From NCBI GenBank assembly GCA_019449455.1, contig JAGRPO010000071.1, positions 1 through 50,873 on the forward strand: 50,873 nucleotides of DNA, written 5' to 3'. The notes beneath the pieces were generated by a model. That model did not search any database. It saw nothing but the letters and a program-made list of their open reading frames with translations, and was not told the DNA's origin. A program made the position numbers and the translations under genes. Below are positions 5 through 11,943 of this stretch, piece after piece (the stretch's first letter is position 1; every line of letters starts with the position of its first letter). Source of the stretch: Betaproteobacteria bacterium. Lineage in GTDB: Bacteria > Pseudomonadota > Gammaproteobacteria > Burkholderiales > Usitatibacteraceae.

Positions 5-1375
5 TCAGTCGATGCCGAGCCGGTCGAGCCGGTAGCGAAGGCTGCGGAAGGTGATGCCCAGCAGCTTCGCCGCCGCGGTCTTGTTGAAGCGCGTGGCCTC
101 GAGCGCCTTCTGGATGGCCTCGCGCTCCACCTGGTCCAGGAAATCGTGCAGCGGCAGCCCGCGCGTGCCGAGCGCGCCGTCGAGCGCGGCGTTCTTCTCC
201 CGGGGCGCGATCTGCGTGAGGTAGAGGTCGCTGTCGCGGATGGTGTTGTCGGTGCACAGGGCGAGCGAGCGCTCGAGGATGTTCTCCAGCTCGCGCACGT
301 TGCCCGGGAAATCGTAGCGCCGGAGCGCGAGCAGCGCCTCGTCCGAGATCGTGGGCGGCGCCACGCCGTTCTGGCGCGCCAGCCGCTCGACCACCTGCGA
401 GACCATGAGGGGGATGTCCTCGGGGATCTCGCGCAGGCTCGGCATCTTCATCTCGATCACGTTGAGGCGGTAGAAGAGGTCCTGCCGGAACTCCCCCGCC
501 TCCACCTGCTCGGCGAGCGAGCGGTGCGTGGCCGAGATGATGCGCATGTCCGTCGCCTCCTCCACCGTGTCGCCCAGGCGCCGGTACTTCTTCTCCTGGA
601 TCACGCGCAGCAGCTTCACCTGCATCGCGAGCGGCAGGTCGCCCACCTCGTCGAGGAAGAGGGTGCCCTTCTGCGCGGCGTCGAGGTACCCGGTGCGGTC
701 GGCGTCCGCGCCGGTGAAGGCGCCCTTGCGGTACCCGAAGAACTCGCTCTCCATCAGGTTCTCGGGAATCGCGCCGCAGTTCACCGCGACGAAGGGCGCG
801 TCCGCCCGCGACGATCCGGCGTGGATCATGCGCGCGGCGACCTCCTTGCCGCTGCCCGACTCCCCGGTGATGTAGACGGGCGCCTGCGAGCGGGCCAGCC
901 GCCCGATCATCTCGCGCGCCCGCTGGATGGGCGCCGATTCCCCGATCAGGCGCGGCACGTCGGAATGCGCGGCCTCGCCGGCGGCCGCGCGGCGCGCCTG
1001 CGGCTGCTTCGGGAGGTTGAGGGCGCTCATCACCAGCGGGCGCAGCTGGTCGAGCTTGATCGGCTTGGCGAGGTAGTCGAAGGCGCCGGCCTTGAGCGCG
1101 GCCACCGCGTTCTCCGTCGAGCCATAGGCCGTGATCACGGCCACGGGCGTGTTGCCGTAGTGCTCGGCGATGTGGCGCAGCACGTCGAGGCCCTCGCCAT
1201 CGGGCAGGCGCATGTCGGTGAGCGCGAGGTCGTAGGGCCGCCGCTCGAGCGCCTGCTTCGCTTCGGCAACGCTCGCCGCGCTGTCGGCGTCGATGCCCAT
1301 GCGCGACAGCGTCACCACCAGCAGCTCGCGGATGTCTGCCTCGTCGTCGACGACCAGGACGGCCTTTGCGTTCAT
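5..1375 (-). CDS. pilR: Sigma-54-dependent response regulator, PilR type
   Basis: 456 residues. The N-terminal receiver domain has the acidic pair D10-D11 and the phospho-acceptor D54. It is followed by an AAA+ sigma-54 interaction domain with Walker A GESGSGKE and the sigma-54 contact loop GAFTGA. The C-terminus is a Fis-type helix-turn-helix ending RSLRYRLDRLGID. The family activates sigma-54 RNA polymerase, classically at pilA for type IV pilus production. The ATG overlaps the pilS stop by four bases (ATGA), so the two are translationally coupled and PilS is the obvious partner. The frame stays open far upstream through pilS, but that is GC-rich read-through; the REC domain begins at this ATG. 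No pilin gene is in the window, so the target is not seen. Confidence 0.95.
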   Translation of the reverse strand: MNAKAVLVVDDEADIRELLVVTLSRMGIDADSAASVAEAKQALERRPYDLALTDMRLPDGEGLDVLRHIAEHYGNTPVAVITAYGSTENAVAALKAGAFDYLAKPIKLDQLRPLVMSALNLPKQPQARRAAAGEAAHSDVPRLIGESAPIQRAREMIGRLARSQAPVYITGESGSGKEVAARMIHAGSSRADAPFVAVNCGAIPENLMESEFFGYRKGAFTGADADRTGYLDAAQKGTLFLDEVGDLPLAMQVKLLRVIQEKKYRRLGDTVEEATDMRIISATHRSLAEQVEAGEFRQDLFYRLNVIEMKMPSLREIPEDIPLMVSQVVERLARQNGVAPPTISDEALLALRRYDFPGNVRELENILERSLALCTDNTIRDSDLYLTQIAPREKNAALDGALGTRGLPLHDFLDQVEREAIQKALEATRFNKTAAAKLLGITFRSLRYRLDRLGID

Positions 1376-3009
1376 CTGATGCCTTTCAGGGTGATGCGGA
1401 AGCGGCAGCCGGGGCCGCCGTCGCAGTATTCGATGTGCGCTCCGTTGCCCTCGCAGAGCTCGCGCGCGATGTACAGGCCGAGGCCGGTGCCCTGGGCCTC
1501 GGTGGTGAAGAAGGGCTCGAAGAGGTGGGGTTGCAGCTCGGCGGCCACGCCCGGCCCGTCGTCGGTCACCTCCAGCGCCAGCATGCCCGGCGTATCGGCG
1601 GGCGCCAGCACCACGCGCACCGAGCCCGGATTCCTGAAGCCGTGCCGCCACGCATTGCGCAGGAGGTTCCACAGGACCTGGTGGAGGTGCTGGCGGTCGA
1701 AGTCCATGCGAAGCGTCGTGCGCACGTCCACCTGCACGCCCTCTGCCGGCACGCCCTCGTTGGCGCAGAAGTCGGCGGCGAACTGCTCGAGGAACGGGCG
1801 GGCCTCGATGGCCTCGGGCTGGGCGCGGTCCCGCCGGTTGAGGTAGAGCACTTCCTGCACGATGCGGTCGAGGCGGTGGACGTTGTCGCGGATGATCGTC
1901 ACGAGGCGGTCGTCGCCCGCCTGCGCGTGCTCCGTCTCGGCCAGGAGCTCCGCGGCGTGGTTGATCGAGGACAGGGGGTTGCGGATCTCGTGCGCGATGG
2001 AGGCCGTGAGGCGGCCCAGCGCGACGAGCTTCATCTGCTGGGCGCGCGCGCGCATGCGGCTCACGTCCTCGACGAACACCACGGTGGGCGGAGGGTTGCC
2101 GGTCCCGATGGCCACGAAGTGGGCGCCGAGCTCGGAGTTCGAGCGCGCCGTGCGGAACGGCATGTAGGTGGCCTCGGGCCCGCGCCGCCACGACTCCAGC
2201 ATGCGGGCGATCTCCGGGGAGTACTCCGACAGGAGCGGCCTGCGCCCCGCCGGCAGCGGCCCCAGGAGCTGGACCGCGCGGGGATTGTGCTGGCGGATCG
2301 TGCCCTCGGGGTCCACGACCAGGAACGCGTCCTGCATGTCGCGGATCACGAGCTCGTTGATCTGCGACATGTTGGCGAGGTCGATCGTGCGTTGCTGGGC
2401 GATGGTCTCGCTGGTGCGCGCATAGCGGGCGAGCGTCCAGCCCAGGCCCGCGGTCGCGAAGAGCGCCATGCTGGTGAGGGCGGACTGCAGGAAATCGCTC
2501 GCGGGCGCGTCGAACCGCCACATCTGGAATGCCTGCTCGACCAGGACGGCGAGGGCCGCGACGGCCGCGTGGAAGAACACGAGGCGCCCGCGCGTGATCA
2601 GGCCCGCCGCGGCGAGCGAGATGAGGAGCGACACGCCGAATCCCGAGCGGATTCCGCCGCTCGTGTGCATGATCACGCCGATGGCGAGGACGTCCACGAA
2701 GACCGCGGCCGTGACCTGCAGCGACAGCCGGGGCTCGCGCAGCAGCGCCGGCACCATCAGCAGCACGGCGGACACCGCGTAGGCCACGAGCGCGGTCACC
2801 GCGAGCCGGGGCTGCAGGGCGCCGAGTTGGAACAGCGAGTTCAGGAAGAGGTAGACGCCCGACAGCCCGGCCGCGAGCATGACGCGGTAGGCCGAGAAGA
2901 TGACCAGCGTGCGCCAGGCGGTTTCGTCGCCGGCGGAGGCCATGGGGGCACGCTCGCCGGGACGCAGGCGGTCGGCGAGGGCCCCGGGGGCGAACGCGGC
3001 CGGCGTCAT
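1372..3009 (-). CDS. pilS: Two-component sensor histidine kinase, PilS type
   Basis: 545 residues. An N-terminal block of about six membrane helices (roughly residues 30-190) is followed by a PAS-like region and a HisKA domain with phospho-acceptor H340 in IAHEIRNPLSS. The ATP-binding domain has the G boxes DDGPGV and GTGLGLYIARELCE. This is the PilS layout: a polytopic inner-membrane sensor that phosphorylates PilR. I chose the ATG at 3009 because it overlaps the stop of the upstream small gene as ATGA; a longer frame to 3096 would run into that gene. An internal ATG at 2942 is an alternative. It forms an operon with the small PP0621-like gene upstream and pilR downstream. Confidence 0.93.
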   Translation of the reverse strand: MTPAAFAPGALADRLRPGERAPMASAGDETAWRTLVIFSAYRVMLAAGLSGVYLFLNSLFQLGALQPRLAVTALVAYAVSAVLLMVPALLREPRLSLQVTAAVFVDVLAIGVIMHTSGGIRSGFGVSLLISLAAAGLITRGRLVFFHAAVAALAVLVEQAFQMWRFDAPASDFLQSALTSMALFATAGLGWTLARYARTSETIAQQRTIDLANMSQINELVIRDMQDAFLVVDPEGTIRQHNPRAVQLLGPLPAGRRPLLSEYSPEIARMLESWRRGPEATYMPFRTARSNSELGAHFVAIGTGNPPPTVVFVEDVSRMRARAQQMKLVALGRLTASIAHEIRNPLSSINHAAELLAETEHAQAGDDRLVTIIRDNVHRLDRIVQEVLYLNRRDRAQPEAIEARPFLEQFAADFCANEGVPAEGVQVDVRTTLRMDFDRQHLHQVLWNLLRNAWRHGFRNPGSVRVVLAPADTPGMLALEVTDDGPGVAAELQPHLFEPFFTTEAQGTGLGLYIARELCEGNGAHIEYCDGGPGCRFRITLKGIR

Positions 3010-3230
3010 GTCGCGTGCTTGCAGGTCGAGGGATCGCGGCAGGTGAACTTGCCGCCTTCCTCCACCGCCTCGCTGCGGGGCATGTTCACGCCGCACCGCG
3101 AGCAGGCGACCATGTCCTCGACGTCCTTCGGCTCCGACGGGTTCGCGTCCGGCACCTGCGACTTGAAGAAGCCGCGGAAAAGAATCCAGATCGCGAAGCC
3201 GATTGCCAGCAGTAGGATGATTCGGGCCAA
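3006..3230 (-). CDS. PP0621-like small membrane protein with zinc ribbon
   Basis: 74 residues: one N-terminal membrane helix (residues 3-20), a short acidic linker, then two cysteine pairs, CSRC and CRDPSTC, that look like a small zinc ribbon facing the cytoplasm. Proteins of this kind (PP0621 family) are commonly found just upstream of pilS in beta- and gammaproteobacteria. Here it overlaps pilS by four bases. The function is not known; the position suggests a role with the PilS-PilR pair, which is inference. Confidence 0.85.
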   Translation of the reverse strand: MARIILLLAIGFAIWILFRGFFKSQVPDANPSEPKDVEDMVACSRCGVNMPRSEAVEEGGKFTCRDPSTCKHAT

Positions 3231-3319: not shown

Positions 3320-4936
3320 CTACGACAGGGGCACCTCGACCTCGAAAAGGACTCCCCTGCCCTCGGGAAGGTTCACCGCGCGCACGGTGCCGCCGTGGAA
3401 CACGGCGACCAGGCGCACGATCGCGAGTCCCAGGCCCAGGTGCCCGCCGCGGCCCTGCCCTTCGTCGCGTCCCGAGACCATGGCGTCGAAGAGGCGCGGC
3501 AGCATGGCGGCGGGAATGGGCGGTCCCTCGTTCGCCACGCCGAGGCGGGCGCGGTGGCCGTCGGACGAGAGCGCGACCCGGATGGCGCTGCCGGCGGGCG
3601 CGAAGTCGAGCGCGTTCTCGACCAGCTTGTCGAGGAGCTGGGCCCACGCATCGGGAACGCCGGTCATCGCGACGGCCTGCGTCGGCGCTTCCAGGTCGAA
3701 GGCGCGGCCCGGGTAGGCGCTGCGATAGCCCTCGACGCAGCCGCGCACCACGGCGGCAAGGTCGAAGGGCTCGCGTTCGGCGCTCTCGAGCATCTTTTCC
3801 AGCCGCGTGCCCTCCGACAGGCGCGAGATGAGGCGGGAGAGGCGGTCGACGCCCTCCCCGGCACGGTCGAGGTAGACGCGCGCCGCGCCCTCGGGCGACT
3901 GGCTCCTCAGGTTGTCGAGCGAGGAGCGCACCACGGCCACCGGCGTGCGAAGCTCGTGCGACAGTTGCCCGGCCATCTGCTCGAGGTAGGTGTTGTAGTC
4001 GCGAAGCCGGCCGAGGACCGCGGCGATCGTGCGTTCGAGGTCGCCGATCTCGTCCTTCGCCCCCGTCAGGGTGATGTCGCCGCGGATCCGACCCTGCGCG
4101 TCGATGGCCGCCTCGGCCTCGGCGTGCAACCGCCGGATGCGCGTGGCGAGCCGCGTGGCGAAATAGAGCAGGATGGCGAACGCGGCCACGCATACCGCCA
4201 GCGTCAACGCGATCAGGTTCTCGAGCGCCGATTGGCGAAGGAGCAGGATGGAGGCCGTGGTCTCCTCCACCACCACCGCGCCCACGATGTCGTCGCCCAC
4301 GAACACGGGTTGCGCGGCCGAGAGTATGGCCACCTCCCGGTCGCGGGTCCCGCGCCAGTAGGTGGACGACACGCCGATGAGCGCGCGGTCGATCTGCGCG
4401 CGCACCGGCGTGGACTCGTCGCCGGCCGGGACCTCGGGCGAGGAGACGACGAGCGACACGACCGGCTTGAGCCACGAGGTGATCGTCGTGCGCGGCGCGG
4501 CCGATCGCGCGGGCGGCGGCTCGCGAAGCGACCCGGAGAGCCCGCGCACGCGCGATCGCGTGTCCACGACCCAGGAGCGCGAGGCGCGCCGGCCCATGAT
4601 GTCGAGGAAGCGCTCGATCTCCTCCGAGGGCGCGTAGGCCGATCCGAGGCTCGCGGCGGCCACCGGGTCCGCGGCGGCGAAGAGCCCGACGATGCGGCGG
4701 CGCTCCTCGTCCTCGGGATCGCCCGGCGCGGCGCCTCCCGGGGGGAAGAGCGCGGGACGGTCGGAGAGCGCCGAGGCCACCGCGCGCGCGGTGGCGGCGA
4801 TGTCCTGCTCCTGGGCGATGCGCAGGAACGCCTCCATCCGGCTGATGAATTGCACCGCGAGCGCCGGGATGGCGAGCAGCACCAGCGAGGCAAGAAGCAG
4901 CCGGAAGCGGATGCCGTGGACGAAGGCCGCTCGCAT
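3320..4936 (-). CDS. Sensor histidine kinase of the proteobacterial dedicated sortase system (PdsS type)
   Basis: 538 residues. An N-terminal membrane helix (about residues 10-30) is followed by a periplasmic sensor region of about 220 residues, a second membrane helix near residues 235-260, a HAMP-like linker, HisKA with H327 in LSHELRTPVAVV, and an ATP-binding domain with a GHLGLGLAIVR box. The N-terminal region (AVQFISRMEAFLR, then ALSDRP) resembles kinases dedicated to proteobacterial sortase loci, and the gene is third in an operon led by the matching response regulator. From memory the family model is nearer 700 residues, so the sensor part here appears short. The ATG at 4936 follows the upstream stop by eight bases. 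Confidence 0.85.
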   Translation of the reverse strand: MRAAFVHGIRFRLLLASLVLLAIPALAVQFISRMEAFLRIAQEQDIAATARAVASALSDRPALFPPGGAAPGDPEDEERRRIVGLFAAADPVAAASLGSAYAPSEEIERFLDIMGRRASRSWVVDTRSRVRGLSGSLREPPPARSAAPRTTITSWLKPVVSLVVSSPEVPAGDESTPVRAQIDRALIGVSSTYWRGTRDREVAILSAAQPVFVGDDIVGAVVVEETTASILLLRQSALENLIALTLAVCVAAFAILLYFATRLATRIRRLHAEAEAAIDAQGRIRGDITLTGAKDEIGDLERTIAAVLGRLRDYNTYLEQMAGQLSHELRTPVAVVRSSLDNLRSQSPEGAARVYLDRAGEGVDRLSRLISRLSEGTRLEKMLESAEREPFDLAAVVRGCVEGYRSAYPGRAFDLEAPTQAVAMTGVPDAWAQLLDKLVENALDFAPAGSAIRVALSSDGHRARLGVANEGPPIPAAMLPRLFDAMVSGRDEGQGRGGHLGLGLAIVRLVAVFHGGTVRAVNLPEGRGVLFEVEVPLS

Positions 4937-4944
4937 GGCCGCGC

Positions 4945-5862
4945 TCAGTCGAGGGCGATGGACAGGCCGAGGGAGCCGAAGCGGTGCGGCGAATGCTGGC
5001 CCTCGAACTCGCGCGAATCCCGCGCGAGGCCCAGGGTGACCGCGCCCCAAGTCTCCGACCAGGCGATCCCGGCCGCGACCCGGCTGACCCGCCGCTCGAA
5101 GCCGGCTTCCGGATTCGGGTCGTCCGCGCGGCGCTCGAGCAGTCGATTGCGGGCGACGGCGCGCACGCTTGCCCCCGCGAACAGCGAGAGGCCGCCCGCC
5201 TTGCGCGGCAAGGGCGGCGTGGCGGCGAAGCGAAGCAGCGGGTTGGCCGCCTCCGCCGGGCCGTCCGTGCGCCACTCGATGCCCGCGTGGCCGAAGGCCG
5301 TGAGCGTTCCCGCGACCCCCCCGCCGTGGATCACCAGCGCTCCCGGGATCGCGGCCGGCCCGATGCGATGCGACCACGCGGCCGCGAGCTGGATATCGGC
5401 GCGGTTGGGCACCTGCCGCGACCAGTCCGTCTCCGGCGCGGGCGCCACGCGGTGGATGACGTCCTGCGCCTGCTCGCCCCACGCCGCGGGGCCGGAGACG
5501 CCGGCGTCGAATCCCAGCGTGGCGAGCGTGTCCGGCGCGATGTCGTGGCGCGCGAGGGATAGCTGCAGGCGCCCCGCGTTGGGTCGGTCGGGGAGCGTCG
5601 GGTCCTGGCGGCCGTCGCCCGTGTACACCTCGTGGACGATGCCCACGTCGAAGCGCTGCTCCCGCGTGGAGGGTGCGCGCAGGAACGTTGCGAGGGGCGA
5701 GGCGGCATCGAGCGGCGCCGAGCGGTAGATGCGCACGCCGCTCGTGTACCAGCGGTCCGAATGGAAGACGTCGTTGTCCACCTGGGCGTGCCACAGGACC
5801 GGGGGGGCGGCGAGGGCGGCCTGCGCGGCCGCCGCGGCGAGCGCGAGGAGCGCGCCCCTCAC
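4945..5862 (-). CDS. LpxR-family (DUF2219) outer-membrane protein, probable lipid A 3'-O-deacylase
   Basis: 305 residues with a signal peptide (ALLALAAAAAQAALA) and a predicted beta-barrel rich in aromatic and alternating residues. Family marks: VDNDVFHSDRWYTSGVRIY near the mature N-terminus (the Asn-Asp pair is in the LpxR active site) and GPAAWGEQAQDVIHRV in the middle, which carries the conserved His. The C-terminus ends in hydrophobic SLGLSIALD, as barrels do. LpxR removes the 3'-acyloxyacyl group of lipid A at the outer surface. The start is a GTG that overlaps the upstream regulator stop (GTGA); no ATG fits the signal peptide. Its place inside the sortase regulatory operon is unusual. 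Activity is inferred, and the family also holds uncharacterised members. Confidence 0.85.
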   Translation of the reverse strand: MRGALLALAAAAAQAALAAPPVLWHAQVDNDVFHSDRWYTSGVRIYRSAPLDAASPLATFLRAPSTREQRFDVGIVHEVYTGDGRQDPTLPDRPNAGRLQLSLARHDIAPDTLATLGFDAGVSGPAAWGEQAQDVIHRVAPAPETDWSRQVPNRADIQLAAAWSHRIGPAAIPGALVIHGGGVAGTLTAFGHAGIEWRTDGPAEAANPLLRFAATPPLPRKAGGLSLFAGASVRAVARNRLLERRADDPNPEAGFERRVSRVAAGIAWSETWGAVTLGLARDSREFEGQHSPHRFGSLGLSIALD

Positions 5863-6554
5863 GCCTTTTCCGTCCAGCGGTAACCCATGCCGTACACCGT
5901 CTCGATCGCGTCGAAGGCGGGGTCGACGGCGAGGAACTTCTTGCGGATGCGCTTCACGTGCGAGGTGATGGTGCCGTCGTCGACCACCATCTCGGCGTCG
6001 CGCATGAGCGTGTCGCGGTCCTTCACGTGGCCGGGGTGGCGGGCGAGGGAGCGCACCATCCAGAACTCCGTGACGGTGAGGTCGACGGGACTGCCCCGCC
6101 ACAGCGCCGACATGCGCGCGGCGTCGAGCTCGAGGGGCCCGCGCACCACCCGCTCGTCGTCCCGCGCCGGCTCCTTGGCCGCCTCCACGCGCCGGAAGAG
6201 CGCCGCGATGCGGGCGAGGAGGTGCGGCAGGCTCGCGTCCTTGGTGAGGTAGTCGTCGGCGCCCAGGCGCAGGCCCGAGACGATGTCGAAATCGGAATCG
6301 CGCGCGGAGAGAAAGATGATGGGAAGCGTGGACGACATCGCGCGCAGGTCGCGGCACAGCGCGAAGCCGCCGTCGATTTCCGCGCCCAGGCCGATGTCGA
6401 CGATGGCGAGATCCGGCAGCCTCGTGGCGAGCGAGCGCATCGCCTGCGGGCGGTCCGCGAACGCCTGCACCTCGTAGCCGGCGCGCGCCAGGGCGTCGGC
6501 GTAGTTCTGGCGGATGGTGGCGTCGTCCTCGACGAGCGCAATGCGGCGCGGCAT
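5859..6554 (-). CDS. Response regulator of the proteobacterial dedicated sortase system (PdsR type)
   Basis: 231 residues, OmpR-like. The receiver domain has D10-D11 and phospho-acceptor D53 in IVDIGLGAEIDGG; the winged-helix DNA-binding domain contains SHVKRIRKKF and ETVYGMGYRW. It heads a three-gene minus-strand operon (regulator, LpxR-type protein, sensor kinase), each junction overlapping or nearly so. It diverges from the sortase substrate and sortase genes, so it is the natural regulator of both sides. Upstream lie a perfect TATAAT six bases before the ATG and a 26-bp palindrome, suggesting self-regulation from a leaderless transcript. Confidence 0.9.
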   Translation of the reverse strand: MPRRIALVEDDATIRQNYADALARAGYEVQAFADRPQAMRSLATRLPDLAIVDIGLGAEIDGGFALCRDLRAMSSTLPIIFLSARDSDFDIVSGLRLGADDYLTKDASLPHLLARIAALFRRVEAAKEPARDDERVVRGPLELDAARMSALWRGSPVDLTVTEFWMVRSLARHPGHVKDRDTLMRDAEMVVDDGTITSHVKRIRKKFLAVDPAFDAIETVYGMGYRWTEKA

Positions 6555-6560
6555 CCCCGG

Positions 6561-6566
6561 ATTATA
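6561..6566 (-). promoter_or_regulatory. -10 element of the sortase regulator gene, probable leaderless start
   Basis: A perfect TATAAT on the minus strand is followed by six bases (CCGGGG) and then the ATG of the response regulator. With normal spacing, transcription would begin at or within a base or two of the ATG, so there is no room for a ribosome binding site. No good -35 is seen because a palindrome occupies that region. Confidence 0.6.
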
Positions 6567-6592
6567 GGGGACGGTTCCTGGGAACCGTCCCC
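6567..6592. repeat. 26-bp perfect palindrome in the divergent sortase promoter region
   Basis: Two 12-base arms, GGGGACGGTTCC and GGAACCGTCCCC, are separated by TG. The palindrome abuts the -10 of the regulator gene and covers the spacer and -35 position. It could be an operator, for example for the response regulator itself. It could also be a mobile REP/MITE-like palindrome, since similar GGGGACGGTTCC palindromes occur as dispersed repeats in other genomes (recalled, not searched). I saw no second copy in this window. Confidence 0.8.
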
Positions 6593-6718
6593 AAATCCTG
6601 CCGTCATCTTTTTGCCCGAATTGGTCGCCGCCCTTCCCGCTTTCCCCAAGGTTGGCGCCCCGGCGCCCGCGCGTAATGGCCCTGCCGAATGGGTCGGCGC
6701 GAAAAAAGGGGAAGAAAA

Positions 6719-8893
6719 ATGTCGAGCAAGGCGGGCGGATACCGGGGCGGAGTCGATGCGGCGCTGGCCGATTTCATCGGGTTGCTGGGCAAGGCGATCG
6801 TCTCGGGCATCGCGGTGAGCGTCGTCCTCGCCCTGGCCGCCCTGGGACTGGCGACGACCGCCAACGCGCAGGCAAAGCCCAATGACGCGAAGACGGGCAC
6901 CCTGCTCTTGCGCACCGGCACGGACGGCGCCTTCGCGCCGGCGCCCAAGGTCGAGACCGACGTCACGATCCACGTGACCGGCATCGTCGCCCGCACGCGC
7001 GTGTCGCAGACCTTCCACAACCCCGGCACGGACTTCGTCGAAGGCGTGTACGTCTTCCCGCTTCCCGAGAACGCCGCGGTCGACCACCTCTGGCTTCGCA
7101 TCGGGGAGCGGGTGATCGAAGGGCAGGTGAAGGAGAAGGAAGAGGCCCGCCGCGTCTACGCCCAGGCCAGGAGCGAGGGGAAGAAGGCCGCGCTGGTCGA
7201 GCAGCAGCGCCCCATCCTGTTCACCAACGCCGTGGCGAACATCGGCCCCGGCGAGTACGTGCGCGTGCTGATCGAGTACCAGCAGACCCTCTCCCTCGAC
7301 AACGGCGAGTACCGCCTGCGCTTCCCGCTCGCCATCACGCCGCGCTACGAGCCTGCCGGCGCCGCGCTCCCGGACGAGCCCAAGACCGACGAGCCCCTGA
7401 AGGTGGCCGCCTCCGGCGCCACGCCCACGGGCGCCGCGGTCGACCCCGTCCTGCACCCCGACTACGCGCCGGCCGGCTGCGGCGGCGTGAACCCGGTGGC
7501 CATCGGGGTCGTCGTCGACTTCGGCGTGCCGCTCGGCAAGGTGGCGAGTTCCTACCACGAAGCCTGGATCGAGAAGGAATCGGGCACGCGCACCGTCGTC
7601 TACCTGCAGAAGGAACAGGAGGAGGCCGACCGCGACTTCGAGCTGGTGTGGGCCCCCCAGGGCGGCGCCGTGCCGCAGGCGACCGTCTTCACCGAATCGA
7701 GGAACGGCACCGACTACACGCTCCTCATGGTGGTGCCCCCGCAGCCCACGGCCGCGGAAAAGGCCGCGATCGCCCCGATGCCGCGCGAAACCGTCTTCAT
7801 CATCGACACCTCCGGCTCGATGCAGGGCATCTCGATCCAGCAGGCGAAGGAAGCCCTCCTCACGGGCCTCGCCACGCTCGCGCCGCGCGACCGGTTCAAC
7901 GTCGTGGAATTCAACTCCGTCACGCGACCGATGTGGCCCGACGCGCTGCCCGCGACGGCCGACAACGTGCAGCACGCCCGTGCCTGGGTCGCGAAGCTTC
8001 GCGCCGACGGCGGCACCGAGATGGCGGGCGCGCTCACCTTCGCGCTCAACGGTCGCGACACCCCCGGCTACCTCCGCCAGGCGATCTTCATGACGGACGG
8101 CTCGGTGGGCAACGAGGACCAGCTCTTCAAGCTCATCGCGCAGCGCCTGGGCTCCACCCGGCTCTTCACCGTGGGCATCGGCTCCGCGCCCAACAGCCAC
8201 TTCATGACCAAGGCGGCGCAGTTCGGCCGCGGCACCTTCACCTACATCGGCGACCTGCGCGAGGTGCAGGAAAAGATGGCCGCGCTCTTCGCGAAGATCG
8301 AGTCGCCGGTGCTGAAGGACGTCTCCATCCGCTGGCCCGACGGCACGCCCGTGGAGACATTCCCGGCGCGCGTCCCCGACCTCTACCTCGGCGAGCCGAT
8401 CGTCGTCGCGGCCGCCCACACCGCGCTCAAGGGGACGATCGTCGTCTCCGGCATGCGCGGAAACGAACCCTGGAGCGTGGCGCTCACGCCGTCGCCGAGT
8501 GGCGAGCAAACCGGCGTGGGCGCCCTCTGGGCCAGGGCCAAGATCGCGACCCTGATGGACGAGCTGCGCATGGGCGCGGACGAAGCGCTCATCCGCCCGG
8601 CCGTGGTGAAGGTGGCGCTCGAGCATCACCTGGTCTCGCGCTTCACCAGCCTGGTCGCCGTGGATGTCACGCCCACCGCGCCCGGCGGCGAGAAGCGCAC
8701 CGCGCTCGTGAAGGCGTCGCAGCCGCGATCGTCCGCCCCCGGCGTCATTCCCCAGACCGACACCGAATCCACCCTGCAGATCCTGCTCGGGCTCCTTGCG
8801 CTGGCAGCCGCCGGGATGGTCGCCCTCCTCGGGCGACTCATCCCGGCAGGAGGGGCGAAGCCCGCCGCCGCGCACGCGGAGGGCTCGCGATGA
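6719..8893 (+). CDS. Sortase-anchored VIT/von Willebrand factor A surface protein (marine proteobacterial sortase target type)
   Basis: 724 residues. An N-terminal membrane/signal segment (residues 25-50, ending TTANA) is followed by a VIT domain (about 60-190) and a von Willebrand factor A domain whose metal site is DTSGS at 363-367. The C-terminal sorting signal is IPQTDTES at 677-684, then a hydrophobic helix (about 688-708), an Arg, and a short tail. This matches the single substrate of the proteobacterial dedicated sortase system, with an LPxTG-like motif that starts with Ile. The ATG at 6719 is preceded by GGGGAA; an in-frame ATG ten codons earlier lacks a ribosome site. The stop overlaps the sortase ATG (ATGA), so enzyme and substrate are coupled. 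The VIT/vWA pair suggests a binding protein at the cell surface or periplasm; the ligand is unknown. Confidence 0.9.
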   Translation: MSSKAGGYRGGVDAALADFIGLLGKAIVSGIAVSVVLALAALGLATTANAQAKPNDAKTGTLLLRTGTDGAFAPAPKVETDVTIHVTGIVARTRVSQTFHNPGTDFVEGVYVFPLPENAAVDHLWLRIGERVIEGQVKEKEEARRVYAQARSEGKKAALVEQQRPILFTNAVANIGPGEYVRVLIEYQQTLSLDNGEYRLRFPLAITPRYEPAGAALPDEPKTDEPLKVAASGATPTGAAVDPVLHPDYAPAGCGGVNPVAIGVVVDFGVPLGKVASSYHEAWIEKESGTRTVVYLQKEQEEADRDFELVWAPQGGAVPQATVFTESRNGTDYTLLMVVPPQPTAAEKAAIAPMPRETVFIIDTSGSMQGISIQQAKEALLTGLATLAPRDRFNVVEFNSVTRPMWPDALPATADNVQHARAWVAKLRADGGTEMAGALTFALNGRDTPGYLRQAIFMTDGSVGNEDQLFKLIAQRLGSTRLFTVGIGSAPNSHFMTKAAQFGRGTFTYIGDLREVQEKMAALFAKIESPVLKDVSIRWPDGTPVETFPARVPDLYLGEPIVVAAAHTALKGTIVVSGMRGNEPWSVALTPSPSGEQTGVGALWARAKIATLMDELRMGADEALIRPAVVKVALEHHLVSRFTSLVAVDVTPTAPGGEKRTALVKASQPRSSAPGVIPQTDTESTLQILLGLLALAAAGMVALLGRLIPAGGAKPAAAHAEGSR

Positions 8894-9549
8894 GCACCTT
8901 CTTCGTGAACGGCCCGTCGAGCTTCGCGGTGCGCGGCCGGTCGTACGGGCCGCCGTCGCCCGAGCCCGCGCGCGAGCGGCGGCCACGGCGGTGGCCGGTC
9001 ACTTCGGCGATCCTGCTGCTCGTGGCGCTCGCCGCGTGGCAACTGGCCGGCGCCGCGTGGATCCACGCCAAGGCGGCGCTCGCGCAGCATCTCATCGCCT
9101 CGGCGTGGGAAGGCACGAAGTCCGGCGGCCCCGCGCGGCCCTGGCCGTGGGCCGACACGCATCCCGTGGCGCGCCTCACCGTGCCCTCGCGCGGGATCGA
9201 CCTCTACGTCCTCGCCGGAACCAGCGGGCGCTCGCTCGCCTTCGGGCCGGGCCACGTCGACGGCACGGCGCTGCCGGGATCGGCGGGCAACAGCGTCATC
9301 GTGGCGCACCGCGATACGCATTTCGCCTTCCTGCGCGACCTCCGCGAAGACGAGGAGATCGACGTCGAGGATGCGCGCGGGCGGCGCACGCGCTATCGCG
9401 TGCGCGAGGTCGCGGTCGTCGACAAGCACGACACGCGGCTCCTCGACCCGGCGGATTCGCCCCAGCTCACGCTCATCACCTGCTGGCCCTTCGACGCGGT
9501 ACAGCCGGGAACGTCGCAACGCTACGTGGTGATCGCGGACCGCGCCTGA
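8890..9549 (+). CDS. Class GN (Gram-negative) sortase
   Basis: 219 residues. A short proline- and arginine-rich cytoplasmic tail (1-36), one membrane helix (about 37-56) and then the sortase barrel. The catalytic set is visible: H140 in VIVAHRDTH, C198 in LTLITCWPF and R211 in TSQRYVV. Sortases cleave the sorting motif and move the protein to an amine acceptor; the acceptor in Gram-negative cells is not established. The ATG overlaps the stop of the adjacent surface protein, its likely only substrate. The tail before the helix is longer than I expect for this class. Confidence 0.93.
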   Translation: MSTFFVNGPSSFAVRGRSYGPPSPEPARERRPRRWPVTSAILLLVALAAWQLAGAAWIHAKAALAQHLIASAWEGTKSGGPARPWPWADTHPVARLTVPSRGIDLYVLAGTSGRSLAFGPGHVDGTALPGSAGNSVIVAHRDTHFAFLRDLREDEEIDVEDARGRRTRYRVREVAVVDKHDTRLLDPADSPQLTLITCWPFDAVQPGTSQRYVVIADRA

Positions 9550-9602
9550 CACGCCGGCGTCATCCGGCCTTCGCGGGCGCCCACCGCGCGGCCGCGGGAC
9601 GC

Positions 9603-9614: not shown

Positions 9615-11294
9615 ATGCGCTTCTTCCCATCGCGCGCCGTCGCCGCGCTCGCTCCCGCTCTCCTCGCCGGCGCCTGCGCGCTCGTTGCGCCGCCGGCGCC
9701 GCCGATCGAGCTGCGCCTCGTCGCGTTCAACGACTTCCACGGCCATCTCGAATCGCCCGCCTTCGGCTGGGTCGTCCCCGATGCGGCGGCCGCCGGCGGG
9801 CGGGCGCGCATCGGCGCGGGCGGGGTCGCGCACCTCGCCACGGCCATTCGCGAGCTGCGCGCGGCGAAACCGCATTCGGCCGTCGTGGCTGCCGGCGACC
9901 TGGTGAGCGCGAGCCCGCTCGTCTCCGCCCTCTTCCTCGACGAACCGTCCATCACGGCGCTGGGCGAGGCGGGGCTGGAGTTCTCGTCGGTGGGCAACCA
10001 CGAATTCGACCGCGGTCGCGACGAGCTCCGGCGGCTCGCGGCCGGCGGCTGCCACCCCAGGGAAGGTTGCCTCTCCGGCCCGTACGCGGGGGCACGCTTC
10101 GGCTACCTCGCGGCCAACGTGATCGACACCGCGACCGGCCGGCCCTTCTTCCCCGCCTATGCGATCAGGCGCTACGAGGGCGTGCCCGTCGCCTTCGTGG
10201 GCGCCGTGCTCGAGTCGACGCCGACGATCGTCGACCGCCGCGGCATCCGCGGCCTGGAGTTCCGCGACGAGGCCGACACCGTGAATGCGCTGGTGCCGGA
10301 ACTGAAGCGCCAGGGGGTGGAAGCCATCGTGCTCCTCGTCCATGAAGGGGGCGTGTCCACGGGAGGCTTCGACGACCCGTCATGCCCCGGCTTCGAGGGC
10401 GCCATCGTCGACATCGTGAGGCGGCTGGACTCCGCCGTAGACGTCGTGGTGAGCGGGCACACGCACCAGGCCTACCGCTGCCGCGTGGACGGGCGCCTGG
10501 TCACCAGCGCCGGCTCGTACGGGCGGCTGGTGACCGCCATCGATCTCGCGATCGACCGCGCCACGGGGGACGTGGTGCGCTCCGATGCGCGCAACGTCGT
10601 CGTCGAGACGAGCCGTTTCGCGGCGGACCCCGCGATCGCCGCGCACGTGTCTCGATTCGCGCGCCTCGCGGCCGGGCGCGCGGGCCGGGCCGTGGGCACC
10701 GTGCAAGGGGAGTTCACGCCGGTCGCCAACGCGGCGGGCGAGTCCAATCTCGGCGACCTCGTCGCGCAGGCGCAGCTCGCCGCGATGCGCGAGGCCGCGG
10801 GAGCGCAGGTCGCGCTCATGAACCCCGGTGGCCTCCGCGCGCCGCTCTCCTCCCGCCGGGCGGATGGCATCGTCACCTACGGCGACCTCTTCTCGGTACA
10901 GCCGTTCGGCAACACGCTCGTCGCCGTGACGCTCACCGGCGCGCAGTTGCTTCGCGTGCTGGAACAGCAGTTCCGCGCGCCCCCGGACCGCACGCGCATC
11001 CTGCAGGCCGCGGGGATCGGCTACGCGTGGGACGGATCGCGCCCGATCGGCAGCCGCGTGGTCCCCGGCAGCGTGACCATCGAAGGCAGGCCCCTCGACG
11101 TCGGCACGGCGTATCGGGTGGCGGTGAACAGCTTCCTGTTCGGCGGCGGCGACGGGTTCACCGTGTTCGCCGAGGGACGCGACGCCGCGGGCGGCCCTGG
11201 CGACCTCGACGCGCTGGAAAGATTCATGGCGGCCGCGCTTCGCGTTGCCGGTCCTCCCGAGGGGCGCATCCGGCGAATCGACCCCACGCAATGA
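9615..11294 (+). CDS. Lipoprotein 5'-nucleotidase / metallophosphatase (UshA-like)
   Basis: 559 residues. The signal peptide ends in a lipobox, LLAGAC, with lipidated C21. The N-terminal calcineurin-like phosphoesterase domain shows FNDFHGHLE, SVGNHEFD and VSGHTHQAY, the metal-binding motifs. The C-terminal 5'-nucleotidase domain includes MNPGGLRAPL and a GGGDGF segment. The family hydrolyses nucleotides such as 5'-AMP or UDP-sugars in the periplasm. The gene lies 65 bases after the sortase and appears to have its own promoter, so it is probably not part of that locus. Exact substrate unknown. Confidence 0.9.
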   Translation: MRFFPSRAVAALAPALLAGACALVAPPAPPIELRLVAFNDFHGHLESPAFGWVVPDAAAAGGRARIGAGGVAHLATAIRELRAAKPHSAVVAAGDLVSASPLVSALFLDEPSITALGEAGLEFSSVGNHEFDRGRDELRRLAAGGCHPREGCLSGPYAGARFGYLAANVIDTATGRPFFPAYAIRRYEGVPVAFVGAVLESTPTIVDRRGIRGLEFRDEADTVNALVPELKRQGVEAIVLLVHEGGVSTGGFDDPSCPGFEGAIVDIVRRLDSAVDVVVSGHTHQAYRCRVDGRLVTSAGSYGRLVTAIDLAIDRATGDVVRSDARNVVVETSRFAADPAIAAHVSRFARLAAGRAGRAVGTVQGEFTPVANAAGESNLGDLVAQAQLAAMREAAGAQVALMNPGGLRAPLSSRRADGIVTYGDLFSVQPFGNTLVAVTLTGAQLLRVLEQQFRAPPDRTRILQAAGIGYAWDGSRPIGSRVVPGSVTIEGRPLDVGTAYRVAVNSFLFGGGDGFTVFAEGRDAAGGPGDLDALERFMAAALRVAGPPEGRIRRIDPTQ

Positions 11295-11403: not shown

Positions 11404-11943
11404 ATGAACCTATTCGACACTCCCGCCGGATTCGACGATCCCATCGCCATGTGGATGGGCTGCCACCGACGCATCGAGAAGCAGCTGAAGACCCTTTCCC
11501 GCCTTCCCGCGCACCTCGCGGACAAGGGCGTCGACGCGGACGCGACCAACGCCGCGCAGGCGATCCTTCGCTACTTCGAGAAGTCCGGGCCGCACCACCA
11601 CGAGGACGAGGACCGCGACCTCTTTCCCCTCATCGAGAAGCGCATCACGGACGCGGGCGAGCTCGCCCGGTTTCGCGAGCTGCGCGCGCGCCTCGAGGCC
11701 GACCACCGCCGGATGGAGACGATCTGGCCCAGGCTGAGGAAGCCGCTGCAGGGCATCGCCGACGGCTTCCCGAAGCCCCTGGACGCGGGCGACGTGGAAG
11801 CGTTCCGCTCGATCTACGAGACGCACATTCCCGCGGAAGACGGCGCGATTCCCGATCTCGCGAGGCGCTACGTGACGCCAGCCGACCTGGAAGGACTGGG
11901 ACGGTCGATGGCCGCGCGGCGCGGCGTGGAGTTTCCGGCCTGA
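11404..11943 (+). CDS. Hemerythrin HHE domain protein
   Basis: 179 residues, all helical. The di-iron ligands of the hemerythrin fold can be placed: H in CHRRIEKQL, H-HHEDE in the second helix, H in ADHRRMETIW and H-x3-E in YETHIPAED. Bacterial proteins of this kind bind oxygen or nitric oxide, or serve in iron and redox stress. The ATG at 11404 starts right at the domain; a longer frame upstream overlaps the nucleotidase and is not supported. The gene converges on the nitronate monooxygenase gene with four bases between stops. The NnrS gene nearby makes a nitrogen-oxide role plausible, but that is inference. Confidence 0.88.
   Translation: MNLFDTPAGFDDPIAMWMGCHRRIEKQLKTLSRLPAHLADKGVDADATNAAQAILRYFEKSGPHHHEDEDRDLFPLIEKRITDAGELARFRELRARLEADHRRMETIWPRLRKPLQGIADGFPKPLDAGDVEAFRSIYETHIPAEDGAIPDLARRYVTPADLEGLGRSMAARRGVEFPA

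What the first reader, a model, noticed from the sequence alone, without database searches (positions are those of the whole stretch)
3320..9549. Dedicated sortase locus in a Gram-negative genome, with an LpxR-type gene built into its regulatory operon
Seen: class GN sortase with H140, C198 and R211; one VIT/vWA substrate with a C-terminal sorting signal, coupled to it by ATGA; a divergent OmpR-type regulator and PdsS-type kinase. Between regulator and kinase, with overlapping or near-overlapping junctions, is an LpxR-family outer-membrane protein. Known: the proteobacterial dedicated sortase system pairs one sortase with one target and a two-component system; an OmpA-family partner is often present but not here. 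Inferred: the system may couple anchoring of the surface protein to a change of lipid A or of the outer membrane, so the LpxR-type protein may be part of the acceptor or secretion route.
Basis: partly seen in the sequence, partly recalled or inferred. Interest (0 to 1): 0.75.

Follow-up and report, generated by a model that had tools for sequence, protein, structure and literature searches.

The report
Lipid-A enzyme inside sortase regulator operon
In one family of betaproteobacteria, a gene for an outer-membrane protein of the kind that trims the lipid anchor of the cell coat sits inside the control operon of a rare surface-protein anchoring system, but relatives that have lost one or the other suggest that neither needs the other.

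Summary
The window holds a class GN sortase with its VIT/vWA target and, divergently, a response regulator, an LpxR-family gene and a histidine kinase, with tight junctions. The middle gene is a real LpxR homologue: it passes the Pfam cut-off, its model is a 12-strand barrel best matching the LpxR crystal structure, and the catalytic His aligns.

Coupling to anchoring is not supported. LpxR lies between regulator and kinase in 0 of 21 fetched sortase loci outside the host family that have an adjacent regulator-kinase pair. It forms one clade confined to two sister genera, gained about once and lost at least twice, once leaving an in-frame scar (G007). Single-contig genomes G012 and G014 keep the sortase without any LpxR; drafts G016 and G018 keep regulator-LpxR-kinase without a sortase.

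Best reading: a lineage-specific lipid A 3'-O-deacylase captured as an extra output of a CreBC-like two-component system, not part of the sortase route. Unexpectedly, the regulator is found without a sortase in 16 of 28 family genomes. There, loci examined face VIT-type proteins, some with CreD, or shrunken targets whose sorting motif is altered or lost.

The parts
3320..4936 (-). Sensor histidine kinase (PdsS-like, short form)
   Evidence: TIGR03785 matched over profile positions 230-703/703, 515.7 bits, below the cut-off 612.2; HisKA and HATPase_c
4945..5862 (-). LpxR-family outer-membrane protein; GTG start overlaps the regulator stop
   Evidence: PF09982 E 1.4e-41; model with 12 strands, best PDB hit 3fid LpxR E 8.1e-14; conserved N30 D31 T40 H137
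5859..6554 (-). OmpR-type response regulator (PdsR)
   Evidence: TIGR03787, 381.7 bits over the cut-off 335.7
6555..6718 (.). Divergent promoter region between regulator and target
   Evidence: Sequences of 13 loci (window and 12 related) shown; TATAAT hexamer of the regulator strand at 6566-6561, seen by eye
6568..6591 (.). Perfect palindrome GGGACGGTTCC-NN-GGAACCGTCCC, a dispersed genomic repeat
   Evidence: 1 copy in the window, 0.00 expected; 56 places in the genome at up to 2 mismatches
6719..8893 (+). Sortase target: signal segment, VIT domain, vWA domain, C-terminal sorting signal
   Evidence: TIGR03788, 735.5 bits; VIT and VWA domains
8747..8842 (+). C-terminal sorting signal: IPQTD motif plus hydrophobic segment (LPQTD in the six congeners)
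8890..9549 (+). Class GN sortase with H140, C198, R211
   Evidence: TIGR03784, 209.5 bits; residues

Best explanation
The LpxR-type gene encodes an outer-membrane lipid A 3'-O-deacylase of a separate subfamily. It was captured once, in the common ancestor of two sister genera, between the regulator and kinase genes of a CreBC-like envelope two-component system (the TIGR03787/TIGR03785 pair). Cotranscribed and translationally coupled with that pair, it is made whenever the system raises its own expression, so lipid A trimming becomes an extra output of the envelope sensor. The sortase and its VIT/vWA target, transcribed divergently, are a second and independent output of the same regulator. Shown: gene identity, predicted fold, conserved catalytic residues, conserved operon order, single-clade origin, and losses of either part without the other. 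Inferred: enzymatic activity, cotranscription, autoregulation, and control of the target by this regulator.
For: PF09982 match and PDB/Foldseek hits to 3fid. N, D, T/S and H conserved in 9 of 9 members; among 32 canonical LpxR rows N, D and T/S in 30 (the other 2 are gaps) and H in 32. Same order regulator-LpxR-kinase in 9 genomes of two genera with tight junctions. One clade, 100/100 support, in a 41-row tree that includes canonical LpxR of three congeners. On the regulator+kinase tree, LpxR presence needs 3 changes and sortase presence 4. dN/dS of 0.31-0.51 in five pairs indicates purifying selection. Of 61 order-level LpxR loci outside the family, none has LpxR between a regulator and a kinase, so the arrangement is not a general LpxR habit.
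Against: LpxR has the highest pN of the compared genes in all five pairs and the highest dN/dS in four of five (0.313 against 0.315 for the target in G000-G002), so its constraint may be weak. All six members of the host genus end in D or P where the three g4 members and the four canonical ones aligned end in F; from recalled knowledge the terminal aromatic helps outer-membrane insertion. The residue nearest the E128 position is not conserved (E, K or H), though canonical LpxR varies there too. 3 of 61 order-level LpxR loci outside the family do have a regulator-like gene within about 2 kb, one of them also a kinase (L251), so chance or repeated neighbourhood with two-component genes is possible. 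No expression or lipid data. The LpxR-without-sortase cases are draft genomes (80% and 87% complete).
Confidence: 0.6

Rival explanations
1. One reading: the LpxR-type protein is a working part of the sortase system, remodelling lipid A so that the target can be anchored or displayed, or preparing the acceptor.
For: Same locus and tight linkage in 7 of 10 sortase-bearing genomes of the family (in G020 the sortase is on another contig). A sortase that attaches cargo to LPS exists elsewhere: PorU and A-LPS in Porphyromonas gingivalis (passages of PMC12704123).
Against: 0 of 21 fetched sortase loci outside the family with an adjacent regulator-kinase pair have room for a gene between the two. Single-contig genomes G012 and G014 have sortase and target but no LpxR anywhere. 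G007 lost LpxR through an in-frame deletion and keeps sortase, target and kinase. G016 and G018 keep LpxR with no sortase found and most of the target gone.
Confidence: 0.1
2. The LpxR-type protein is an accessory sensor: its state in the outer membrane feeds the kinase, which explains its place between regulator and kinase and the short kinase.
For: The kinase lacks the first 229 profile positions of TIGR03785; position inside the operon; terminal aromatic lost in the host genus.
Against: Kinases are about equally short in family members of g2 and g3 without LpxR beside them and in those that lost it. The sensor region is as conserved between G001 and G007, after the G007 loss, as the kinase core (97.6% against 96.3%).
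Confidence: 0.12
3. Passenger: the gene landed in the operon and is kept for its own function, expressed but with no regulatory meaning.
For: Rapid evolution; loss in G007, which carries a canonical LpxR elsewhere, and in the ancestor of G010, G012 and G014.
Against: Kept with near-overlapping junctions across two genera; it is the only LpxR found in G000, G002, G006, G016, G018 and G020.
Confidence: 0.15

Closest known systems
Proteobacterial dedicated sortase system (TIGR03784, TIGR03787, TIGR03788 and partly TIGR03785)
   Same: One sortase, one VIT/vWA target with an LPxT-like C-terminal signal, divergent regulator and kinase
   Different: LpxR gene between regulator and kinase; short kinase below the family cut-off; no PdsO over cut-off in the genome
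LpxR lipid A 3'-O-deacylase (PF09982; structure 3fid)
   Same: Predicted fold, catalytic His and the N-D and T/S motifs
   Different: Separate clade on a stem of 1.49 changes per column (midpoint root); gene fixed inside a two-component operon; no terminal F in the host genus
CreBC two-component system with CreD
   Same: CreB is the third-best and CreC the second-best NCBIfam model of regulator and kinase; CreD (PF06123) lies in the divergent neighbourhood in five g2 genomes and in G009 (6 of 6 proteins tested). CreBC and CreD of other bacteria: search listing only (PMC5402928, PMC4689548)
   Different: Regulator scores far below the CreB cut-off (150.9 against 273) and above the TIGR03787 cut-off
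Porphyromonas gingivalis PorU/A-LPS attachment
   Same: A sortase that uses LPS as acceptor, in a bacterium that also has LpxR (passages of PMC12704123)
   Different: A type IX secretion component; homology was not tested here, and the passages seen claim no linkage of LpxR to the sortase genes

Membership tests
LpxR (PF09982) | Profile over the gathering score | tested here: met
   143 bits against 26
LpxR (PF09982) | 12-strand barrel with the LpxR fold | tested here: met
   Predicted model: 12 strands, mean pLDDT 75.8; best PDB hit 3fid, TM 0.70, E 8.1e-14
LpxR (PF09982) | Catalytic His (H122 of 3fid) | tested here: met
   H137 aligns with H122 in the profile alignment to 3fid; 9 of 9 members
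LpxR (PF09982) | N9, D10 and T34 of the active site (named in passages of PMC6260217) | tested here: met
   Conserved motif positions N30, D31, T40 in 9 of 9 (one S for T); the first 45 residues of 3fid are not in the alignments, so the numbering match is inferred
LpxR (PF09982) | E128 | tested here: inconclusive
   E, K or H at the nearest column, also variable in canonical LpxR
LpxR (PF09982) | 3'-O-deacylase activity | not testable with these tools
   needs lipid A mass spectrometry
Class GN sortase (TIGR03784) | Equivalog cut-off and His-Cys-Arg | tested here: met
   209.5 against 158.25; H140, C198, R211
Sortase target (TIGR03788) | Equivalog cut-off and C-terminal sorting signal | tested here: met
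   735.5 against 551.65; IPQTD plus hydrophobic segment; a PxTx motif occurs in the last 70 residues of 52 of 56 targets
Response regulator (TIGR03787) | Equivalog cut-off | tested here: met
   381.7 against 335.7
Histidine kinase (TIGR03785) | Equivalog cut-off over the full profile | tested here: not met
   515.7 against 612.2; first 229 profile positions missing
PdsO (TIGR03789) | OmpA-family partner in the genome | tested here: not met
   best of 7 hits 75 bits against 152.2
CreB (NF008296) | Equivalog cut-off | tested here: not met
   150.9 against 273

The most novel reading that the evidence does not exclude
The regulator-kinase pair named after the sortase is really an envelope switch of CreBC type with exchangeable outputs. 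Its constant partner is a VIT-type protein or a remnant of one in the divergent slot. In different lineages this protein is sortase-anchored, or lacks a sortase and in several loci sits with CreD, or has shrunk to a two-helix mini-protein; the LpxR gene is one more plug-in output. The sortase is an optional accessory and not the purpose of the system.
Probability: 0.35. Interest if true: 0.62.

Novelty: new variant of a known kind. Interest (0 to 1): 0.45.

Why it matters
The function and acceptor of Gram-negative dedicated sortases are, as far as I know, not established. This family supplies natural gene losses in all four combinations of sortase and LpxR (the two combinations without LpxR include single-contig genomes), so hypotheses that tie the sortase to lipid A can be tested by comparison. 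Change or loss of the LPQTD motif in the three genomes that lack the sortase but keep a shortened target fits that motif as the recognition site, with the caution that the motif also varies among sortase-bearing targets. The persistence of the regulator beside VIT-type proteins without any sortase suggests what the regulator-kinase pair is for and warns that the TIGR03787 name does not imply a sortase.

Tried and rejected
Coupling of LpxR to anchoring was tested by co-occurrence and rejected as a general rule. Origin of the operon copy from the canonical LpxR of congeners was rejected: the canonical copies of G003, G004 and G007 fall in another part of the tree. An explanation of the short kinase by LpxR was rejected, since family members without LpxR beside them have it too. 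The palindrome in the regulator promoter was considered as a regulator box and rejected, since it is a dispersed repeat and other arm sequences stand at the same site in relatives. A viral-contig scan with the LpxR protein found no relative (3 pattern matches, none confirmed). Literature: one search listed 20 of 50 LpxR papers, one search found 3 papers with the dedicated-sortase terms, one search found 2 papers with both LpxR and sortase, one search found 1 unrelated paper, and one search listed 8 of 27 CreBC/CreD papers; none describes this arrangement in the listings, abstract starts or passages I saw.

That rested on the 28 best-scoring loci. I fetched 33 more, weaker stretches; 3 of these have a regulator-like gene within about 2 kb (L228, L250, L251) and L251 also a kinase.

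Limits: G037 (a 56.6-bit sortase hit, below cut-off) was not fetched, so 60 of the 61 sortase-hit genomes other than the window's own were examined. Several fetched contigs end inside or near the locus (for example L064, L067, L070, L073, L102). The sortase of G020 lies on another contig than its regulator-LpxR-kinase; that contig begins inside the target gene. The scan used two peptide patterns of the subfamily, so distant LpxR genes inside such operons could be missed. The dN/dS stretches are profile envelopes and begin about ten codons before the LpxR start, inside the regulator overlap. The 'quick' tree of regulator plus kinase has SH-aLRT support only.

Full report
WHAT IS THERE. The five genes of the finding are real and in the stated order. 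On the + strand lie the VIT/vWA sortase target (6719-8893) and the class GN sortase (8890-9549), joined by ATGA. On the - strand lie the response regulator (5859-6554), the LpxR-type gene (4945-5862) and the histidine kinase (3320-4936). Sortase, target and regulator exceed the NCBIfam equivalog cut-offs; the kinase does not (515.7 against 612.2 bits) and lacks the first 229 profile positions. Sortase residues H140, C198 and R211 are numbered correctly. The LpxR GTG overlaps the regulator stop, and the kinase ATG lies 8 bases after the LpxR stop. PdsO is absent over cut-off in the genome.

THE MIDDLE GENE IS AN LpxR. PF09982 matches with E 1.4e-41. A model from nine related sequences has 12 strands (mean pLDDT 75.8), and its best PDB hit is 3fid, LpxR of Salmonella, E 8.1e-14 and TM 0.70. 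H137 aligns with H122 of 3fid, the catalytic base according to passages of PMC6260217. The N-D and T/S motif positions are conserved in 9 of 9 members (one S), and W147 and Q150 in 9 of 9. The column nearest E128 varies in both this group and canonical LpxR. In the host genus the protein ends in D or P, while the three g4 members and the four canonical ones aligned end in F.

HOW COMMON THE ARRANGEMENT IS. Sortase searches covered relatives (13 of 100 genomes, E at most 0.001), the order (20 of 399, E at most 1e-25) and the phylum (37 of 398, E at most 1e-25). I fetched 60 loci besides the window and searched them with profiles grown from the window proteins. LpxR was found in 6 of these 61 loci, all in the host genus. 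The same profile detects LpxR in 59 of 61 order-level LpxR loci outside the family (28 of 28, 31 of 33), so missing a distant LpxR in many loci is unlikely. Of the 51 sortase loci outside the host family, 21 have a strong regulator and kinase next to each other, with at most about 230 bases between the profile envelopes and so no room for a gene of this size. A family-wide LpxR search (28 genomes) then showed three further regulator-LpxR-kinase operons in the sister genus g4: G016, G018 and G020. A pattern scan of 84,980 species genomes with this subfamily found 8 loci, whose contigs match in length those of the eight genomes already seen. So the arrangement is confined, as far as these searches reach, to one betaproteobacterial family; the record titles say Burkholderiales, Betaproteobacteria, Pseudomonadota or, once, Lysobacter. 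As background, 3 of 61 order-level LpxR loci outside the family have a regulator-like gene within about 2 kb, one of them with a kinase (L251), and none has LpxR between the two.

DISSOCIATION OF THE TWO PARTS. In the host genus 6 of 7 sortase genomes have the LpxR gene. The seventh, G007, keeps only its first 4 and last 14 codons in frame, with regulator, kinase, target and sortase present. In genus g4, G012 and G014 (single-contig genomes) have sortase and target but no LpxR anywhere. G020 has LpxR, regulator, kinase, the start of the target, and a partial sortase on another contig. G016 and G018 have LpxR but no sortase, and only a shortened target. G010 (single contig) has neither LpxR nor sortase. 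On a tree of regulator plus kinase (35 rows) LpxR needs 3 changes and sortase 4; G007 is sister to LpxR-bearing G001, and G010, G012 and G014 form one clade. The LpxR subfamily is one clade with 100/100 support and is not derived from the canonical copies of congeners. dN/dS of the LpxR gene is 0.31-0.51 in five pairs, against 0.08-0.16 for the regulator and 0.06-0.29 for the kinase in the same pairs; in one pair the target is level with it (0.315 against 0.313). The kinase sensor region did not diverge faster after the G007 loss (97.6% identity to G001 against 96.3% for the kinase core). In the order-level draws, 0 of 15 sortase genomes outside the family are in the list of 60 LpxR-positive genomes (both drew 399 genomes with the same settings, and I did not compare the draws genome by genome). 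About two would be expected by chance, so this is weak evidence.

WHAT THE REGULATOR PAIR DOES WITHOUT A SORTASE. The regulator passes its cut-off in 26 of 28 family genomes, and 10 of these have a sortase hit, which leaves 16, most of them drafts. In genus g2 the divergent slot of eight loci holds a protein whose profile matches the N-terminal segment and VIT domain of the sortase targets (hhalign probability 97.8%, E 1.1e-12; 5 of 8 members hit the Pfam VIT model at E up to 1, best 0.00033, below any firm call on their own). In several loci CreD follows (PF06123 met in 6 of 6 proteins tested, from L186, L184, L175, L180, L178 and L185). In other g2 loci no CreD was seen within 2.5 kb (for example L174 and L177). 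In G010, G016 and G018 the slot holds a short open frame that keeps the target's signal segment, a middle piece and the C-terminal hydrophobic segment, while the VIT and vWA domains are gone. The sorting motif reads PQDGES in G010 and PDTVDT in G018, and none is recognisable in G016. As a control, a PxTx motif is found in the last 70 residues of 52 of 56 targets beside a sortase, but the stricter [LIVP]PxTx in the last 85 residues of only 40 of 56, so the motif varies in working loci too. Passages of PMC3237569 report that vault-type proteins carry different sorting signals in different bacteria, each with its own sorting enzyme, which fits a modular view.

MECHANISM. Most likely (0.6): an outer-membrane lipid A 3'-O-deacylase became an output of a CreBC-like envelope two-component system through capture into its operon. 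The sortase and target are a separate output. Activity, autoregulation and control of the divergent gene are inferred.

NOVELTY. The parts are known kinds; their combination is a lineage-limited variant that I did not find in print in the held library (listings, abstract starts and some passages seen). The natural gene losses make the question testable, and the sortase-less regulator loci are the more surprising result.

Noticed in passing
L131:5454-5831 (-), L133 about 9174-9563 (+), L176 about 8194-8592 (+): Three sortase-less genomes carry a short open frame opposite the regulator that keeps the sortase target's signal segment, a middle piece with VGALWA or VDALWA and the C-terminal hydrophobic segment, without VIT and vWA domains and with the LPQTD motif altered or lost. 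The same three pieces are kept in all three, by one event or in parallel.
   Followed up: partly
L177:6104-7243, L184:5857-6996, L186:6389-7333 and others of genus g2: The TIGR03787 regulator over cut-off faces a VIT-type protein, in several loci with CreD, in genomes where no sortase was found. The NCBI equivalog name may overreach.
   Followed up: partly
window 6568-6591: A perfect palindrome just behind the regulator's TATAAT hexamer is a dispersed repeat (56 places in the genome). By eye, 7 of 13 loci (window included) have GGGGAC...GTCCCC palindromes at this site, with differing arms.
   Followed up: partly
window 6595-6718 and 12 related loci: By eye, two blocks upstream of the target (around CATnTTnTTGCC and GCGCGnAATGG) recur in the divergent region, also where the target is shortened. 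They are candidates for the regulator or promoter site; no statistic was computed.
   Followed up: no
L251 and L250 (order-level LpxR loci of one other family, genomes G161 and G122): A regulator-like gene lies within about 2 kb of a canonical-type LpxR hit, in L251 with a kinase before it: a possible separate case of LpxR near a two-component system.
   Followed up: no
window 9615-11294 and 11404-11943: A 5'-nucleotidase-family gene follows the sortase, then a hemerythrin-domain gene. In G007 (L061) a hemerythrin-like gene follows the sortase directly.
   Followed up: no
window 5-3096 (-): A PilS-like kinase (6TM_PilS domain) and, by sequence, an NtrC-type regulator lie downstream of the sortase-system kinase. 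A similar pair is at the same place in loci of both genera.
   Followed up: no
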